Shown here: positions 31,458-60,175 of the stretch, piece after piece
Layout of the letters: the number at the start of each line of letters is the position of its first letter
How positions within the stretch are numbered: the first letter of the stretch is position 1
Source: Alphaproteobacteria bacterium
GTDB taxonomy: Bacteria > Pseudomonadota > Alphaproteobacteria > Sphingomonadales > Sphingomonadaceae
Assembly: GCA_005883305.1 (NCBI GenBank)
Contig: VBAC01000002.1
Location: 304,527-368,526, forward strand
Reading direction: 5' to 3'
Length of the DNA stretch: 64,000 nt
Translations under genes and position numbers: made by a program
Notes under the pieces: generated by a model
Told to the model about the DNA's origin: nothing
The model's input: only the letters and a program-made list of their open reading frames with translations
The model's database searches: none

Positions 31458-32257
31458 CCGGCTTGATGAAGGGCAAACGCGGGCTGATCATGGGCCTCGC
31501 CAACGACCGCTCGCTGGCCTGGGGAATCGCTCAAAAGCTTGCCGCGGCGGGCGCGGAGCTCGCCTTCTCCTACCAGGGCGAGGCGATGGAGAAGCGGGTG
31601 CGCCCGCTCGCCGATCAGCTGGGCACGGCTTTCCTGATCGATTGCGACGTCTCCGACATGGCCAATCTCGACCGCGCGTTCGAGACGCTGAAGGCGAAAT
31701 GGGAGACGATCGACTTCCTGGTCCACGCGATCGGCTTTTCCGACAAGAACGAGCTCCGCGGCCAGTTCGTCGACACCAGCCTCGACAATTTCCTGCTGAC
31801 GATGAACATCTCTGCCTACAGCTTCGTCGCCGTCGCCCAGCGGGCGCGGCCGATGATGCCCGAAGGCGGCAGCATCCTCACCCTTTCCTATTACGGCGCC
31901 GAGAAGGTGATCCCGCATTACAACGTGATGGGGGTCGCCAAGGCCGCGCTCGAGACCAGCGTCAAATATCTCGCGATGGACCTGGGGCCTGAGAATATCC
32001 GGGTCAACGCCATCTCCGCCGGTCCGATCAAGACGCTCGCGGCGAGCGGCATCGGCGACTTCCGCTACATCATGAAGTGGAACGAATATAACGCGCCGCT
32101 CAGGCGCAACGTGACGATCGAGGATGTCGGCGGCGCGGGTCTCTATCTGCTCTCCGACCTCGCCTCCGGCGTCACCGGCGAGATCCACCATGTCGACGCC
32201 GGCTACAACGTGGTCGGAATGAAGGCCGAGGACGCGCCTGACATCGCGACCACGTGA
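31454..32257 (+). CDS. fabI: Enoyl-ACP reductase (NADH)
   Basis: A 267-residue short-chain dehydrogenase of fatty-acid synthesis; the target of triclosan-type inhibitors. The divergent nucleotide loop GLANDRSLAWGIA, the catalytic Y-x6-K in YNVMGVAK with upstream SYYGAEKV, and NAISAGPIKTLAASGI are typical of FabI. The stop TGA lies within ACGTGAGC (32252-32259), the sequence that reappears at the start of aroC on the other side of the DUF559 cassette. Confidence 0.97.
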   Translation: MTGLMKGKRGLIMGLANDRSLAWGIAQKLAAAGAELAFSYQGEAMEKRVRPLADQLGTAFLIDCDVSDMANLDRAFETLKAKWETIDFLVHAIGFSDKNELRGQFVDTSLDNFLLTMNISAYSFVAVAQRARPMMPEGGSILTLSYYGAEKVIPHYNVMGVAKAALETSVKYLAMDLGPENIRVNAISAGPIKTLAASGIGDFRYIMKWNEYNAPLRRNVTIEDVGGAGLYLLSDLASGVTGEIHHVDAGYNVVGMKAEDAPDIATT

Positions 32258-32263
32258 GCCTTG

Positions 32264-32328
32264 ACCCCTCTCCCGTTCAGGGAGAGGGAGGGGCCCATTG
32301 CCGAAGGCAATGGGAGGGTGAGGGCACG
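32264..32328 (+). repeat. Left terminal repeat of the DUF559 cassette
   Basis: About 65 bases made of two hairpins. Hairpin 1: CCCTCTCCC, loop GTTCA, GGGAGAGGG. Hairpin 2: ATTGCC, loop GAA, GGCAAT. It ends with GGGAGGGTGAGGGCACG. Apart from the hairpin 2 stem and one base, it is identical to the reverse complement of the right repeat. Confidence 0.85.
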
Positions 32329-32331
32329 ACC

Positions 32332-32754
32332 GTGAGAAAGATCGACGGCACCGAAGCCTTGGCTCGAGTCCGCCAACTCCACCGTGAAATGACTCCGGCA
32401 GAGAAGCTGCTCTGGAGCCGGTTGCGGAACCGTCGCCTGGACGGCTTCAAGTTCAGATCCCAGGTCTGGCTCGGCTTTTTCATCGCTGACTTCTTCTGCT
32501 GGGAAGCCAAGCTGGTCGTCGAGGTCGATGGATCGCAGCATGCCGACCGGATTGGCCATGATCGCGCCCGGTCGGAGCAGCTAGGCCGGCAAGGCTACAA
32601 GATTCTCCGCTTCTGGAACAATCAGGTGCTTGGCGAGCTGGAGGCCGTGCTTGCCGCCATCCGTGTCCAGCTCCAGGCCCGCGTGCCCTCACCCTCCCGT
32701 CCTGCTGCGCAGGCCGGGCCCCTCCCTCTCCCTGAAAGGGAGAGGGGTACGTGA
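32332..32754 (+). CDS. DUF559 domain endonuclease-like protein
   Basis: A 140-residue protein of the DUF559 family, which shares the PD-(D/E)XK/Vsr-like nuclease fold. Expected active-site residues are present: MTPAEKLLW (Glu24), FIADFF (Asp53), VVEVDGSQH (Glu64, Asp66, His70), then [14 protein letters not shown]. The start is GTG at 32332, directly inside the left repeat; an in-frame GTG at 32254 would need the repeat to be translated. The last ~24 residues are encoded by the right repeat, and the stop TGA lies in the right direct repeat, overlapping the aroC GTG (GTGA). It is likely a DNA-cleaving enzyme; whether it moves its own cassette is unproven. Confidence 0.85.
32682..32749 (-). repeat. 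Right terminal repeat of the DUF559 cassette
   Basis: Inverted partner of the left repeat. Read on the minus strand it has the same hairpin 1 (CCCTCTCCC, loop TTTCA, GGGAGAGGG) and a hairpin 2 with a different but still paired stem: CCTGC, loop GCA, GCAGG. The flanks GAGGGGCCC and GGGAGGGTGAGGGCACG are unchanged. Confidence 0.85.
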
Positions 32755-33680
32755 GCGTGAACAGCTTCGGCCATGTCCTGCGAGTCACCACCTGGGGCGA
32801 GAGTCACGGGCCGGCGATCGGGGCGGTGATCGACGGCTGCCCTCCCGGGCTGGCGCTCGGCGAGGGCGACATCCAGCTTTGGCTAGACAAGAGACGCCCC
32901 GGCCTCTCGCGCCATACCAGCCCGCGCGCCGAGCCGGACCGGGTGCGCATCCTCTCCGGAACCTATGAAGGACGAACGACGGGAACTTCAATCAGCCTGA
33001 TGATCGACAATGTCGATGCGCGCTCCGCCGACTATGAAGACATGCCGCCCCGCCCGGGCCATGCCGACGCCGCCTATCAGGCCAAATACGGCGTGCGCGA
33101 CCCGCGCGGCGGCGGCCGGGCTTCGGCGCGCGAGACGGCGGCGCGGGTCGCTGCGGGCGCGGTGGCGCGGCTGGTCGTCCCGGAAGTGGCCATTGAGGCG
33201 AGGCCGATCGAGATCGGCGGCTCGACGGACGATTGGGAGGCGCTGCTCGACGAGGCGCGAGAGGCGGGAAGCTCGCTCGGAGCGGTGGTCGAATGCGTCG
33301 CGCGCGGCGTGCCCGCGGGCTGGGGCGCGCCGGTCTACGCAAAACTCGACGCCGAGCTGGCGGCGGCATTGATGTCGATCAACGCCGTCAAGGGCGTCGA
33401 GATCGGCGCAGGCTTCGATGCCGCGCGGGCGCGCGGCGAGGACAATGCCGATCCCGCGCTTGCCGGCGGCATCACCGGAGGGATCGCGACCGGGGAGCCC
33501 ATCGTCCTTCGCGCCGCCTTCAAGCCGACCTCCTCCGTCCCCGCGCTCGGCGTGAAAGGGCGACACGACCCCTGCGTGGCCTTGCGCGGCGCCCCGGTGG
33601 TCGAGGCGATGGTGGCGCTCGTCCTCGCGGACCACAAGTTGCTTCACCGCGCCCAATGCGGCCAAGGGAGGGGCGAATGA
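32751..33680 (+). CDS. aroC: Chorismate synthase, unusually short
   Basis: Converts EPSP to chorismate using reduced FMN, last step of the shikimate pathway. [57 protein letters not shown] and KGRHDPC identify it. It has only 309 residues, compared with about 350-365 in the family. Three segments are missing or much shortened: the loop after RPIEIGG, the stretch before GGITGG that normally contains the FMN-contacting (N/H)AGG motif, and the stretch between FKPTSS and KGRHDPC. The reading frame is intact. It is either a compact functional form or a decayed copy. GTG start overlapping the DUF559 stop. Confidence 0.88.
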
Positions 33681-46461: not shown

Positions 46462-49400
46462 TCAATGGAAATTGCGCGATTTGATGCGCAGCCCGCCATC
46501 GGGCGAAGGCGGCAAGGCGGGGCGCGGCGGCGGATCGCGGTGATCGCGGCCGCCGCCCCGCGCGGCGTCGGCCGGCCCGGGCCGGTGCGGGAAGTCCATC
46601 GCGCCCACTCGGTGCAGCAGGGGCGTCAGGTCGTCGAGCCTTTCGGCGACGATGTGGACGACCTGCCCTTCCCGCTGCAAAATGCCGTGCACGCCGACCA
46701 TCGCCGAGGCGAGAACCGTGCGGCGGTGGGCATCGAAGACGCGCTGCCACAGGATCGCGTTGGCGATCCCGGTCTCGTCCTCCAGCGTCAGGAAGGTGAC
46801 ATTCCCCTTGCCCGGCCGCTGGCGGACGAGGACGATGCCGGCGACATGGACCCTTGCTCCGTCCCGGAGGCGGCCCAGCTGTCCGGCGGGAGTCACGCCA
46901 TGCCGCTCCAGCTCGGGGCGAAGGAAGGCGAGCGGATGGCTTCGCAGCGACAGCTGGAGCGCGCGATAATCCTCGACCACCTCGCGCCCGTCGCTCATCG
47001 GCGCGAGCGACACCGCCGGCTCGTTGGCCCGTGCCTCGGCCGCGGCGAACAATGGCAGCGGCGCGCCGCCGAGGCCCCGCACCCGCCACAGGGCCTGCCG
47101 CCGGTCGAGCCCGAAGCATCGGAAGGCGTCGGCATCGGTCAGCTTCTCCAGCGCCGCAGCCGGCACGCCGGTGCGCGCCATCACGTCCTCGATCGAGGCG
47201 AAGGGACGGTCCTGAGCCGCCGCGGCGATCCTGGCGCCGTGCGCGTTGGAAAGGCCTTTCACCATGCGCAGGCCGAGGCGGAGGGGCAATAAATCCCTTA
47301 AGCCCTCCCCCTTGATGGGGGAGGATTGGGTGGGGGTGGCGTCGATGCAGGGCAGTGTCTTTCCGGAGACTCCACCCCACCCCAACCCCTCCCCATCAAG
47401 GGGAGGGGCTTTATCCTCCAAAGTGCAATCCCAGCGGCTGGCATTCACACAAACCGGCCGCACCTCCACCCCGTGTTCGCGCGCGTCGCGGACGAGCTGG
47501 GCGGGGGCATAGAAGCCCATCGGCTGGGCGTTGAGGATCGCCGCGCAGAAGACGTCGGGATGGCGGCATTTCATCCAGGACGAAGCGTAGGCGATCTTGG
47601 CGAAGCTCGCTGCGTGGCTTTCGGGAAAGCCGTAGCTGCCGAAGCCTTCGATCTGCTTGAACGTCCGCTCGGCGAAGTCGTGCGTGTAGCCGTTGGCGAT
47701 CATGCCATCGATCATCGGCGCGCGAAACCTGCTGACCCCCCCGGTCGACTTGAACGTGGCCATCGAGCGGCGCAACGCGTCGGCCTCGGCTGCGGTGAAG
47801 CCGGCGCCGACGATGGCCACGTTCATCGCCTGCTCCTGGAACAGCGGCACGCCGAGCGTCTTTTTCAGCACCGCCTTGAGCTCGGGCTTGGGATATTCGG
47901 GCTTCTCCTTCCCCTCGCGCCGCCGAAGATAGGGATGGACCATGTCGCCCTGGATCGGGCCGGGCCGGACGATCGCGACCTGGATGACGATGTCGTAGAA
48001 TTCTTTCGGCTTGAGCCGCGGCAACATCGACATCTGCGCCCGGCTTTCGATCTGGAACGTGCCGAGCGTGTCGGCCTTCTGGATCATTGCATAGACTTCG
48101 GGATCGTCCCGTTGCAGCGCGTCAGACCAGAGATTCATGTCGACCGATTTGTGCGCCCGCAGCAGGTCGAACGCGCGGCGCATGCAGCCGAGCATGCCGA
48201 GACCGAGCACGTCGAGCTTCATGATCCGGAGTTCCTCGAGGTCGTCCTTTTCCCACTGGATCACGCGGCGGTCCTCCATCGCCGCGGGCTCGATCGGGAC
48301 GAGATCGTCGAGCCGGTCGTGGGTGAGGACGAAGCCGCCCGGATGCTGGCTGAGGTGACGCGGCGTACCGATCAGCTGGCGGGTAAGCTCCAGGGTCAGC
48401 GCCAGACGCGGATCGTCCTTGTCGAGCCCCAGATCCTCGACATGCTGCTCGGCCACCCCGTCGTTCGACCAGCCCCAAACCTGGCCCGAGAGGCTTGCGG
48501 TGACGTCCTCCGAAAGGCCGAGCGCCTTGCCGACCTCGCGCACCGCGCCGCGCGTGCGGTAGCGGCTGACAACCGCGGTAATGGCCGCGTGCTCATGCCC
48601 ATAATTCTCATAGATCCACTGGATCACTTCCTCGCGCCGCTCATGCTCGAAATCGACGTCGATATCGGGCGGCTCGTTCCGGTTCTCGGAGATGAAACGT
48701 TCGAACAGGAGCGTATGCCTGACCGGGTCGATCGAGGTGATCCCGAGCAGGTAGCAGATCATGGAATTGGCCGCAGAGCCGCGCCCCTGGCAGAGAATCT
48801 CCTGACTGCGGGCGAACTGGACGACCGAATTGACGGTGAGGAAATAAGGCGCGTAGCCGAGCTTGCCGACCAGCCTGAGCTCGTGATCGAGCAAATCGGC
48901 ATAGGCTTTGGGAGCGCCCTCGGGGAATTTGGAGCGAAGCGCGTCGCGGGTCAGCCGCTCGAGCGCCTGTTGCGGCGTCCGGCCCGACATCACCACCTCG
49001 GCGGGGTATTGGTAGCTGAGCTCGCGAAGCGAGAAGGTGCAGCGTTCTGCGATGTCCGCGGTGGCCTGGACCGCGTCTGGAAAGGCGCGGAAGCGGCGCT
49101 CCATCTCCCAGGGCGCCTTGAGATGGCGATCGGCGAAGCGCTCGCGGCGGAAACCCAGTTCATCGATCGTACAATGCGCGCGAATCGCGGTGACGACGTC
49201 GTGGAGCATGCGCCTGCCGGGGCTGTCGTAGAGTACGTCGCCGGTGGCGAGGCTGCGCAGGCCATGGCGGCGGGCAAGCCCGTCGAGGTCGTGGAGCCGC
49301 TTCGCCTCGCCGGGGCGGCGGCGGTGGGTCAGCGCGAGATGGCCGCTCGCGCCGAAGATGTCCGCCATCTGGGCGAGCGCGATTTCGGTCACTTGATCGG

Positions 49401-49794
49401 CCTCGTCGGGGACGAGCGCCGCGACCAAGCCCTGGCTCCAGGCGGCGACGTCCTCCCAGTGGAGAAAACATTGGCCCTTCTCGTCCTTCTTGCGGTCGAT
49501 CCGGCTCTTGCCGGTGGTGAGCAAACGGGTGAGGCGCGACCAGCCGGCGCGATCCTCGGGCCAGACCAAAAGCGCGGACCCATCCATCAGGTCGAGCCGG
49601 CAGCCGGCGACGAGGCGGACGCCGGTCTCGCGCCCGGCCTTCAGCGCCTTGACCAGCCCACCGACACTGTTGCGGTCGGCGACGCCGAGCGCCGGATAGC
49701 CGAGCATCGCCGCCGCCGCGAACAGCTCTTCGGCGCTGGAGACCCCGCGCAGGAAGCTGAAATGGGTCGCGGCCTGGAGCTCGACATAGGTCAT
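46462..49794 (-). CDS. dnaE2: Error-prone DNA polymerase DnaE2 with in-frame repeat insertion
   Basis: A 1110-residue C-family polymerase of SOS mutagenesis. PHP domain at the start ([16 protein letters not shown]), the polymerase active site in [31 protein letters not shown], and the C-terminal OB fold ([24 protein letters not shown]). Residues about 796-831 are not protein-family sequence: they come from an inverted repeat element at 47302-47409 read in frame, between WDCTLE and LRLGLRM. Its start overlaps the imuB stop (ATGA). It acts with ImuA and ImuB. Confidence 0.95.
47302..47409. repeat. GC-rich inverted doublet inside dnaE2
   Basis: Two inverted copies separated by a short spacer. 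Left: CCTCCCCC, loop TTGAT, GGGGGAGG, then ATTGGGTGGGGGTGG. Right, read on the minus strand: CCCCTCCCC, loop TTGAT, GGGGAGGGG, then TTGGGGTGGGGTGG. It keeps the dnaE2 reading frame open. Confidence 0.88.
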
Positions 49795-58995: not shown

Positions 58996-60111
58996 ATGTT
59001 GACAGGCAAGACAAAGCTTCGCTCCGAATTCGAGGAGAAGGCGCGCGCGCTGGGCTTTTGCGCGTTCGGCGTGGCCCGCGCCGACTCCGCGCCGCTGACC
59101 GCCGAGCGGCTGCGCGCCTGGCTTGAATCGGGCGCCCACGGCGACATGATCTGGATGGAGGAGAGCGCGGAGCGGCGCGGCTCGCCGGCCGGCTTGTGGC
59201 CCGAAGCGAAGAGCGTGATCGCGCTTGGCATGAGCTATGCGCCGCAGGGCGATCCGCTGGCGCTCGCCGCCGCTGCGGACCGGGGGCGGATCTCCGTCTA
59301 CGCCCAGGGCTCGGACTATCATGACCTGATCAAGAAGGCGCTGAAGGCGCTGGCGCGCTGGCTGGTCGATCAATCCGGCTGTGACCTAAAGGTCTTCGTC
59401 GACACCGCGCCGGTAATGGAAAAGCCGCTCGCCGAAGCGGCGGGGCTGGGCTGGCAGGGCAAGCACACCAACCTGGTCAGCCGCGCCGACGGCAGCTGGC
59501 TGTTTCTCGGCGCGATCTACACCACCCTGGAGCTGGGCGAGGACCTGCCGCCGGACGCGCCCCACGCGCCGCGCTGCGGCTCGTGCCGGGCGTGCCTCGA
59601 TGCCTGTCCGACCAACGCCTTTCCGGCGCCCTTCCAGCTCGATGCGCGGCGCTGCATCTCCTACCTGACGATCGAGCATAAGGGGCCGATCCCGGAGGAA
59701 TTCCGGGCCGCGATGGGCAACCGGATCTACGGCTGCGACGATTGCCTGGCCGTCTGCCCCTGGAACCGCTTCGCCGACGCCGCCCGGGCGAACCGGGCCT
59801 TCCTGCCCCGCGCCGAACTCGCCGCCCCCGCGCTCGCCGACCTTCTCCAGCTCGACGATTCCGGCTTCCGCCGGGTCTTCGCGGGCTCTCCGATCAAGCG
59901 GATCGGGCGGAACCGGATGGTGCGCAACGCGGCGATCGCCGCGGGGAATAGCGGGCTCCCCGAGCTGGCGCCGATCCTGGAGCGGCTCGTCAAGGACGAG
60001 GACGAAGTGGTGGCCGAAGCGGCGCGCTGGGCGCTGGGCCGTCTGGGACAATCCTCCCCTGCATTTGCAGGGGAGGGGGACCATGCGCAGCATGGTGGAG
60101 GGGCTTTTTGA
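58996..60111 (+). CDS. queG: Epoxyqueuosine reductase
   Basis: A 371-residue cobalamin- and iron-sulphur-dependent enzyme, last step of queuosine synthesis on t[30 protein letters not shown] carries the catalytic region; two 4Fe-4S clusters bind at [12 protein letters not shown] and [11 protein letters not shown]; a HEAT-like C-terminal part follows. The last ~20 residues (from about 352) and the stop are encoded by an inverted-repeat element at 60050-60175, replacing the native end. Confidence 0.95.
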
Positions 60112-60175
60112 GCAAAGAAGGCCCCTCCACCGCTCTTCGAGCGGTCCCCCTCCCCTCGACATCGAGGGGAGGATT
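60050..60175. repeat. Two-hairpin inverted doublet at the end of queG
   Basis: Left copy: CCTCCCCTGCA/TGCAGGGGAGG hairpin, then CCATGC, loop GCA, GCATGG, then TGGAGGGGC. Right copy (minus strand): CCTCCCCTCGA/TCGAGGGGAGG hairpin, then CCGCTC, loop GAA, GAGCGG, then TGGAGGGGC. Outer ends AATCC/GGATT. The copies are separated by about 16 bases, with no gene. The design is the same as for the DUF559 cassette ends. Confidence 0.88.

What the first reader, a model, noticed from the sequence alone, without database searches (positions are those of the whole stretch)
32252..32756. A DUF559 nuclease gene forms a self-contained cassette with inverted repeats and a target-site duplication
Seen directly: an 8-bp direct repeat ACGTGAGC flanks 489 bases that hold two inverted ~65-bp repeats and one DUF559 ORF. 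The upstream copy contains the fabI stop, the downstream copy contains the aroC start and the DUF559 stop. Removing the insert gives a GTGA fabI/aroC overlap, like the other tight seams in this window. Because the target was duplicated, DUF559 ends on the same ACG TGA codons as fabI did, so coupling to aroC is retained. DUF559 proteins have a PD-(D/E)XK/Vsr-like nuclease fold, and the catalytic residues look intact. No transposase is present. I infer that the nuclease and its palindromic ends form a minimal mobile unit, analogous to REP/RAYT pairs but with an unrelated enzyme. I do not know of a description of such a system.
Basis: partly seen in the sequence, partly recalled or inferred. Interest (0 to 1): 0.9.

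Follow-up and report, generated by a model that had tools for sequence, protein, structure and literature searches.

The report
Nuclease gene with its mobile palindromes
A small DNA-cutting enzyme gene sits between two matching hairpin repeats, and across its bacterial relatives this enzyme family travels with its own kinds of repeats, which also occur as many gene-less copies; it looks like an unrecognised kind of jumping DNA, although the jumping itself has not been tested.

Summary
In detail: a DUF559 gene lies between two ~65-nt double-hairpin inverted repeats at the fabI/aroC seam, bounded by ACGTGAGC. Relatives G014 and G020 carry the empty seam.

The pattern is general. DUF559 is in 25 of 26 genus genomes. 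Of 111 evaluable loci (110 genus, one outside) 99 have flanking inverted repeats above the 99th percentile of same-locus controls, at 43 of 49 site groups. Nine end types follow the gene tree (15 changes, shuffled mean 62.7). The ends recur without the gene as head-to-head pairs, with up to 210 type-A half-sites per genome. RAYT-type transposases were not found in 15 of 26 genomes, including the richest. Profile and fold match homing endonuclease I-Bth0305I.

Units also sit in frame inside hsdM and probably metG; the window holds a gene-less pair in frame inside dnaE2.

Best reading: a REPIN/RAYT-like system built on a homing-endonuclease-related nuclease.

The parts
32252..32259 (.). left copy of the 8-bp direct repeat ACGTGAGC; holds the fabI stop and the first DUF559 GTG
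   Evidence: matches the empty site in L131 and L144
32264..32328 (+). left end: two hairpins, type B (CCCCTCTCCC-loop-GGGAGAGGG, then CCCATTGCC-GAA-GGCAATGGG, then GGGTGAGGGCACG)
32254..32754 (+). DUF559 (PF04480) nuclease ORF, 166 aa from the GTG that overlaps fabI; an inner GTG start lies at 32332 (140 aa)
32682..32748 (-). right end: inverted copy of the type-B double hairpin
32749..32756 (.). right copy of ACGTGAGC; holds the DUF559 stop and the aroC start
60050..60175 (.). gene-less head-to-head pair of type-A ends in the same window, at the end of queG; the queG stop lies inside it
47300..47411 (.). gene-less pair resembling type E, in frame inside the error-prone polymerase ORF dnaE2 (46462..49794, minus strand)
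   Evidence: edges set by eye

Best explanation
The cassette is one member of a family of mobile elements made of a single DUF559 nuclease gene (a Vsr / PD-(D/E)XK-like fold, nearest among characterised enzymes to the homing endonuclease I-Bth0305I) between two cognate double-hairpin ends. I propose that the nuclease recognises its own end type, probably as a hairpin in single-stranded or cruciform DNA, cuts there, and that repair or replication copies the unit, or gene-less derivatives made of the two ends alone, into new sites, mostly just behind stop codons. Shown here: unit structure, gene-end pairing, gene-less copies, filled and empty sites, fold, purifying selection. Inferred: that this enzyme makes the cut, and how insertion happens.
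For: Inverted repeats flank 99 of 111 evaluable DUF559 loci, median score 28 against 9 in 1312 control windows; 43 of 49 site groups. The two arms of a unit get the same end type separately in 86 of 99 (shuffled mean 14.5). End type on the gene tree: 15 changes against 62.7 shuffled. Gene-less head-to-head pairs exist; in G005, 25 type-A half-sites = 2 gene units + 8 pairs + 5 singles (read off). Genomes with the clade-A or clade-B gene have more repeats of that type (p 0.005 and 0.0007; 0.012 and 0.022 after subtracting two ends per unit; clades assigned by hand). Empty and filled states at fabI/aroC, pdhC/lpd (9 filled, 2 empty of 24 readable) and hsdM. Inner hairpin shows compensatory changes (29 cells, shuffled 7.7, 0 of 500). 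dN/dS 0.09-0.24 in 14 of 15 chosen pairs, one saturated. Invariant E24, Q44, D53, E64, D66, D77 among 8 invariant columns in 78 sequences. Profile to 3r3p E 1.7e-5; Foldseek to 3r3p E 4.5e-4, TM 0.81 on the target. Left ends lie within 30 nt of a co-directional stop codon at 33 of 43 sites against 20 of 162 control positions.
Against: No activity was tested. No general target-site duplication. Many copies sit at orthologous sites across species, so part of the gene-end agreement is vertical inheritance, and the repeat-gene counts were not corrected for phylogeny. For types D and E the gene-repeat association disappears once the units' own ends are subtracted. G017 and G019 hold 23 and 35 type-A repeats without a clade-A gene found. 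Type-B ends occur with at least three separate gene clades. In the covariation test the number of further pair types was not above shuffles (8 against 8.9). Outside the genus 16 of 31 loci pass the same score and only four pass that call's own stricter control. E. coli ycjD has no such ends.
Confidence: 0.6

Rival explanations
1. The nuclease is a homing-type passenger: the palindromes are spread by something else, and DUF559 genes home into existing palindrome pairs by cutting their spacer, with repair copying the gene in.
For: Nearest characterised relative is a homing endonuclease. A gene-less pair looks like a unit without the gene. Units occur in both orientations at one site (L096 and L119 against L097, L099, L107, L110, L118), as recombination at inverted ends would give. 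Repeats occur without a found gene in G017 and G019.
Against: Four of the six genomes without a clade-A gene have 0-1 type-A half-sites. The one other candidate tested, Y1/RAYT, was not found in the genome with 210 half-sites. No other mobiliser was looked for.
Confidence: 0.2
2. Classical cut-and-paste or replicative transposition with an 8-bp target duplication.
For: This copy has the 8-mer on both sides and the empty site holds it once.
Against: In 99 units flanking direct repeats match shuffled pairs; of the two units with 8 nt or more, the other (L108, 10 nt) has it overlapping its palindrome. Four extra bases lie between the left copy and the palindrome. No transposase fold among the matches.
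Confidence: 0.07
3. A host DNA-repair nuclease (Vsr-like, as VsrA of Caulobacter) kept for a cellular job, with the flanking palindromes acting only as transcription terminators or mRNA stabilisers.
For: Purifying selection, long persistence at the same sites, and VsrA, a DUF559 protein with a DNA-damage phenotype (PMC12907096, passages read).
Against: Nine gene-matched end types, gene-less pairs, in-frame insertions in coding genes, empty sites.
Confidence: 0.1
4. Chance inverted repeats around a small gene in GC-rich DNA.
For: G-rich repeats are common here, so some local alignment is always found.
Against: Same-locus controls score far lower; reversed-pattern controls give 0 matches in each of the 26 genomes.
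Confidence: 0.01

Closest known systems
REP/REPIN with RAYT (TnpA_REP) tyrosine transposases
   Same: One enzyme gene between palindromic repeats, gene-less paired repeats, gene and repeat types matched, units shared across species at the same site, mostly behind stop codons.
   Different: The enzyme is a Vsr/PD-(D/E)XK-like nuclease, not an HUH Y1 transposase; Y1_Tnp was not found in 15 of 26 genomes. The GTAG tag of REPs (PMC3733652, passages read) was not looked for.
Vsr-like homing endonuclease I-Bth0305I (3r3p)
   Same: Profile and fold match to its catalytic domain.
   Different: That enzyme is deposited as a mobile intron protein; here I saw no intron or intein (none was searched for), and the gene is framed by palindromes found at many unrelated sites.
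Rickettsia palindromic elements and other MITEs
   Same: Palindromes inserted in frame in coding genes (review PMC10969869, passages read).
   Different: In that review's passages MITEs are non-autonomous; here a matched nuclease gene accompanies the palindromes.
VsrA of Caulobacter crescentus (DUF559)
   Same: Same Pfam domain (PMC12907096, passages read).
   Different: Predicted there to be a mismatch-repair endonuclease, linked in function to a methyltransferase; the passages I read mention no flanking palindromes or mobility, and I did not inspect that locus.
Rhizobium-specific intergenic mosaic elements (RIME) and Sinorhizobium AB/C palindromes
   Same: Abundant intergenic repeats of unknown function in rhizobia (PMC2573895, passages read). 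A 3.3-kb query holding a Sinorhizobium DUF559 unit matched 93 plasmid records; in 20 of the 25 listed only its end region matched.
   Different: Identity of those ends with named RIME or AB/C motifs was not tested; the link is a lead.

Membership tests
REP/RAYT system | HUH/Y1 tyrosine transposase (PF01797) as the enzyme | tested here: not met
   The window protein matches DUF559, and MTES_1575 below cut-off, in Pfam; Y1_Tnp not found in 15 of 26 genomes
REP/RAYT system | enzyme gene flanked by the same palindromes that occur gene-less elsewhere | tested here: met
REP/RAYT system | paired inverted gene-less repeats (REPIN-like) | tested here: met
   (exact pairs without the gene in 7 of 30 type-A loci); G005 rows
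REP/RAYT system | GTAG tetranucleotide tag and its cleavage | not tested
   no motif search was made
DUF559 (PF04480) | Pfam profile above cut-off | tested here: met
   122.4 bits against 20.6
Vsr-like (EDxHD, name recalled) homing endonucleases | homology to the catalytic domain | tested here: met
Vsr-like (EDxHD, name recalled) homing endonucleases | gene inside an intron or intein, homing to one cognate allele | tested here: inconclusive
   Stand-alone or in-frame at 49 site groups, which speaks against one cognate allele; no intron or intein search was run
Insertion sequence with TIRs | constant-length target-site duplication | tested here: not met
Insertion sequence with TIRs | DDE, HUH or serine/tyrosine transposase | tested here: not met
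   window protein in Pfam, NCBIfam and Foldseek
Any transposable element | filled and empty sites | tested here: met
   fabI/aroC, pdhC/lpd, hsdM; all between species, none between near-identical strains
Any transposable element | element-encoded enzyme catalyses movement | not testable with these tools
   needs an assay

The most novel reading that the evidence does not exclude
DUF559 nucleases are the mobilising enzymes of a separate class of bacterial transposable element, an independent counterpart of RAYT/REPIN that uses a homing-endonuclease-related fold. They are the parents of the G-rich hairpin repeats, often read in frame as SPLPxGEGxGEG-like peptides, that accompany them in Pseudomonadota and Deinococcus, possibly including long-known orphan palindromes such as those of Sinorhizobium.
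Probability: 0.5. Interest if true: 0.92.

Novelty: categorically new. Interest (0 to 1): 0.82.

Why it matters
Some families of bacterial palindromes have no known mobiliser; the 2013 survey PMC3733652 says so for CGTC repeats (passages read). If DUF559 nucleases move the palindromes they travel with, such orphan repeats may gain an enzyme, a common domain of unknown function gains a role, and there would be a second, unrelated solution to the REPIN/RAYT way of life, so that its long persistence can be compared across two origins. In-frame landing in hsdM, dnaE2 and probably metG also makes it a source of new protein sequence. The claim is testable with one protein and one pair of ends.

Tried and rejected
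Target-site duplication as a family trait: rejected. Arms kept stop-free in the DUF559 frame so that insertion is not polar: rejected, other frames are about as open (left 67 of 99 against 52 and 68; right 80 against 87 and 81). RAYT as mobiliser: disfavoured. Known RNA family: in the window only sub-threshold matches (whalefall-1, 18.2 and 15.8 bits against 37, and one microRNA model); 0 matches at gathering score in nine loci; a laxer scan of seven loci gave sub-threshold microRNA and riboswitch matches, taken as chance. Defence system: 0 PADLOC matches; PHROGs gave one weak family of unknown function. A clean strain-level filled/empty pair in Sinorhizobium meliloti: the one site tried is a mosaic of repeats and gave none. 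Azospirillum: same site in all seven records that hold the locus, so uninformative. The exact hsdM junction could not be placed because the linker varies in length; six plasmid records with 80% or more of that query covered were not looked at. The PDB profile search also listed enterotoxin B chains at E 0.28 and above, taken as chance and not followed.

Rows dropped: of the DUF559 matches, six were not fetched (short fragments or hits at contig ends: G013:C229, G019:C37, G019:C11, G020:C7, G008:C2, G000:C2:152347). Of the 113 loci examined (112 of the genus plus L050), L077 and L120 could not be scored; L008 is a duplicate of L007. Tree and direct-repeat tests use the 99 loci that passed, so loci without ends are not in them. 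The nine end-type consensus strings were drawn by eye from these same units. The covariation test used 22 of 30 fetched type-A loci, those with the 34-nt core. The dN/dS pairs were 15 close pairs of my choice. The 12 plasmid loci L275-L286 were scored without controls and are in none of these counts.
Full report
WHAT IS THERE. Between fabI and aroC the window holds ACGTGAGC (32252-32259), a left double hairpin (32264-32328), a DUF559 ORF (32254..32754), an inverted right double hairpin (32682-32748) and ACGTGAGC again (32749-32756). The domain is PF04480 at 122 bits. Both ends fold far better than shuffled sequence (z -5.1 and -4.2, against -0.1 for one mid-gene control). The ORF's GTG overlaps the fabI stop and its stop overlaps the aroC start.

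EMPTY SITES. Of 24 fabI loci found in 26 genus genomes, 11 have aroC downstream within 0.6 kb. G014 and G020 have fabI running straight into aroC as ACGTGAGCTTCAAC, and G002 has 19 nt between. G018 and G010 have a lone half of the same end type at this seam (G010 with more sequence). Among the 11, only the window's genome has the full unit. At pdhC/lpd, 25 genomes have the pdhC locus and 24 can be read to lpd: nine carry a DUF559 unit (G007's lies further along), G011 (TAATG overlap) and G006 (15 nt) are empty, G013 keeps a hairpin remnant, and 12 hold 243-1301 nt of other sequence that I did not analyse.

THE FAMILY. DUF559 occurs in 25 of 26 genus genomes. I examined 112 genus loci plus one Nitrosomonadales locus, L050 (six short or contig-end rows left out). 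With 250 nt on each side, 99 of 111 evaluable loci (L050 among the 99) have an inverted repeat scoring above 13, the 99th percentile of 1312 control windows from the same loci; the median is 28 against 9. In the window's own genome 6 of 7 DUF559 loci pass, L004 does not, and one of the six (L007) is a broken gene. Merging loci that share even one flank gives 49 site groups, 43 with such ends.

GENE AND ENDS MATCH. I drew nine end-type consensus strings by eye from these units and assigned each arm separately. Left and right agree in 86 of 99 units (shuffled mean 14.5, maximum 27 of 1000). On the gene tree the types need 15 changes (minimum 8, shuffled mean 62.7, none of 200 as low). The tree is a quick one on 108 columns with 43 of 96 inner branches open, and orthologous copies make part of the agreement; type A, however, covers 16 site groups. 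Type B appears with at least three gene clades, and at the pdhC site group types H and B occur within one gene lineage, so pairing can switch.

GENE-LESS COPIES. The ends recur without the gene as head-to-head pairs (for example L010, L012, L013, L015, L018). Type-A half-sites, ends of gene units included, occur in 24 of 26 genomes, up to 210, with none for the reversed pattern; in the 20 genomes with a clade-A gene at least one remains after subtracting two per gene. Of 30 type-A loci inspected, 7 show an exact gene-less pair, and many more show one exact half. Type B is in 20 of 26 genomes, E in 14 and D in 15 (exact patterns, so undercounts). Genomes holding the clade-A or clade-B gene have more repeats of that type (p 0.005 and 0.0007; 0.012 and 0.022 after removing the units' own ends). 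Clades were assigned by hand. For D and E the association is present only before that subtraction (0.019 and 0.023, or 0.052 and 0.036 with the narrower gene sets; 0.29-0.49 after). In the cross-table the matching clade has the lowest p for A, B and D and is level with clade B for E. Phylogeny was not corrected for. Exceptions: G017 and G019 have 23 and 35 type-A half-sites and no clade-A gene found; G019 is 82% complete.

ENZYME. Across 78 sequences E24, Q44, D53, E64, D66, G67, D77 and R80 are invariant. dN/dS is 0.09-0.24 in 14 of 15 chosen pairs; one was saturated. The AlphaFold model is confident (pLDDT 88.9, pTM 0.77). Best solved matches are 3hrl, an endonuclease-like protein of Neisseria, and 3r3p, the catalytic domain of homing endonuclease I-Bth0305I (profile E 1.7e-5; Foldseek E 4.5e-4, TM 0.81 on the target); these two alone reach Foldseek E 0.001. 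Mitochondrial ribosomal proteins, PvuRts1I and Vsr follow at weaker scores. The name EDxHD for that homing-endonuclease group is recalled.

RAYT AS A RIVAL MOBILISER. Y1_Tnp is found in 11 of 26 genomes. It was not found in G010, which has 210 type-A half-sites, nor in G011, G018, G007 and G005. The single Y1_Tnp of this genome is flanked by a different palindrome, GGGGACAGTTACTAGTAACTGTCCCC. Other possible mobilisers were not searched for.

STRUCTURE OF THE ENDS. In 22 type-A ends the inner hairpin has four pairs with changes on both sides, 29 such cells against 7.7 in shuffles (0 of 500), covariation score 0.273 against 0.104 (0 of 500); the number of further pair types is not raised (8 against 8.9). 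The hairpin itself is therefore kept, whether through selection or through copying of one arm from the other.

WHERE THEY LAND. At 33 of 43 sites the left end lies within 30 nt of the stop codon of a co-directional upstream ORF, against 20 of 162 control positions. In L002, as at fabI, the unit's start codon overlaps the upstream stop. Flanking direct repeats are not longer than in shuffled pairings. The window's 8-mer matches the empty site on both sides and is probably a real duplication at this copy, but it is not a family rule.

BEYOND THE GENUS. DUF559 is in 108 of 299 sampled genomes of the phylum (70 of 154 genera). Of 30 fetched loci plus E. coli ycjD, 16 of 31 exceed the score of 13; controls in that call reached 32-34 in their top 1%, and only four loci exceed that. 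Among 12 plasmid loci, scored without controls, two Deinococcus and two Sinorhizobium loci have clear matching ends. In-frame units: in an HsdM ORF (L200), where the seven homologues that I could read across the place have a plain linker; and, identified by eye only, in MetG (L050), asparagine synthetase (L197) and at the start of a CbiG-like ORF (L183, L184, L186). Deinococcus plasmids carry the gene at two different junctions of an hpa operon.

SAME WINDOW. A type-A gene-less pair lies at the end of queG (60050-60175), and a pair resembling type E sits in frame inside dnaE2 (47300-47411, edges by eye).

MECHANISM. Most likely (0.6) the nuclease cuts its cognate hairpins and repair or replication copies units and gene-less pairs elsewhere; the cut and the insertion are inferred. 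The main rival is a homing passenger in palindromes moved by something else (0.2). Units in opposite orientation at one site suit either.

LITERATURE. The held library has 14 papers naming DUF559 (listing read) and 4 naming COG2852 (listing read). Further searches: DUF559 with inverted repeats and transposable, 0 papers; Vsr-type endonuclease with palindromic, 0; REP with Sphingomonas, 0; REPIN/RAYT with endonuclease, 5; I-Bth0305I with Vsr, 1; Rickettsia palindromic elements, 7; mosaic elements in Sinorhizobium, 3; homing endonuclease with REP, 3. No title or abstract opening in these listings describes such a system. I read passages of four papers and no paper whole. Preprints and most subscription papers are not held, so prior description cannot be excluded.

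NOVELTY. It works like REPIN/RAYT but fails that family's defining enzyme, and it is related to homing endonucleases but shows many unrelated sites instead of one cognate allele. I rate it categorically new on the condition that the enzyme is shown to act; if it is only a passenger it would be a new variant of homing genes.

Noticed in passing
window 47300-47411 inside ORF 46462..49794 (-): A gene-less palindrome pair resembling type E lies in frame inside the error-prone DNA polymerase gene dnaE2 and adds about 40 residues ([41 protein letters not shown]; edges by eye).
   Followed up: partly
window 60050-60175: A type-A gene-less pair lies at the end of queG; the gene's stop codon lies inside the repeat, so the protein ends in repeat-encoded residues.
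   Followed up: partly
window 32751-33677: The aroC product is 309 aa and matches the chorismate synthase models in two stretches (models of 344 and 351 positions), as if some internal residues were missing.
   Followed up: no
L247 (G000:C1:2019659-2019979): The genome's only Y1/RAYT-type transposase hit is flanked by its own palindrome GGGGACAGTTACTAGTAACTGTCCCC, unrelated to the DUF559 ends.
   Followed up: partly
L181, E. coli K-12: ycjD, the E. coli DUF559 gene, also sits next to fabI, without palindromic ends; probably coincidence.
   Followed up: partly
L007 (G000:C1:951599-951911): A seventh DUF559 copy in this genome is split between two reading frames but keeps palindromes on both sides.
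   Followed up: no
L096, L119 against L097, L099, L107, L110, L118; L085 against L065, L076: Units at the same genomic site occur in opposite orientations in different species, suggesting inversion between the ends or repeated insertion.
   Followed up: no
L284, L285 and NC_003078.1 (Sinorhizobium): A 3.3-kb query holding a Sinorhizobium DUF559 unit matched 93 plasmid records at 255 places, in most listed rows through its ends alone; these may correspond to known orphan palindromes of that genus.
   Followed up: partly
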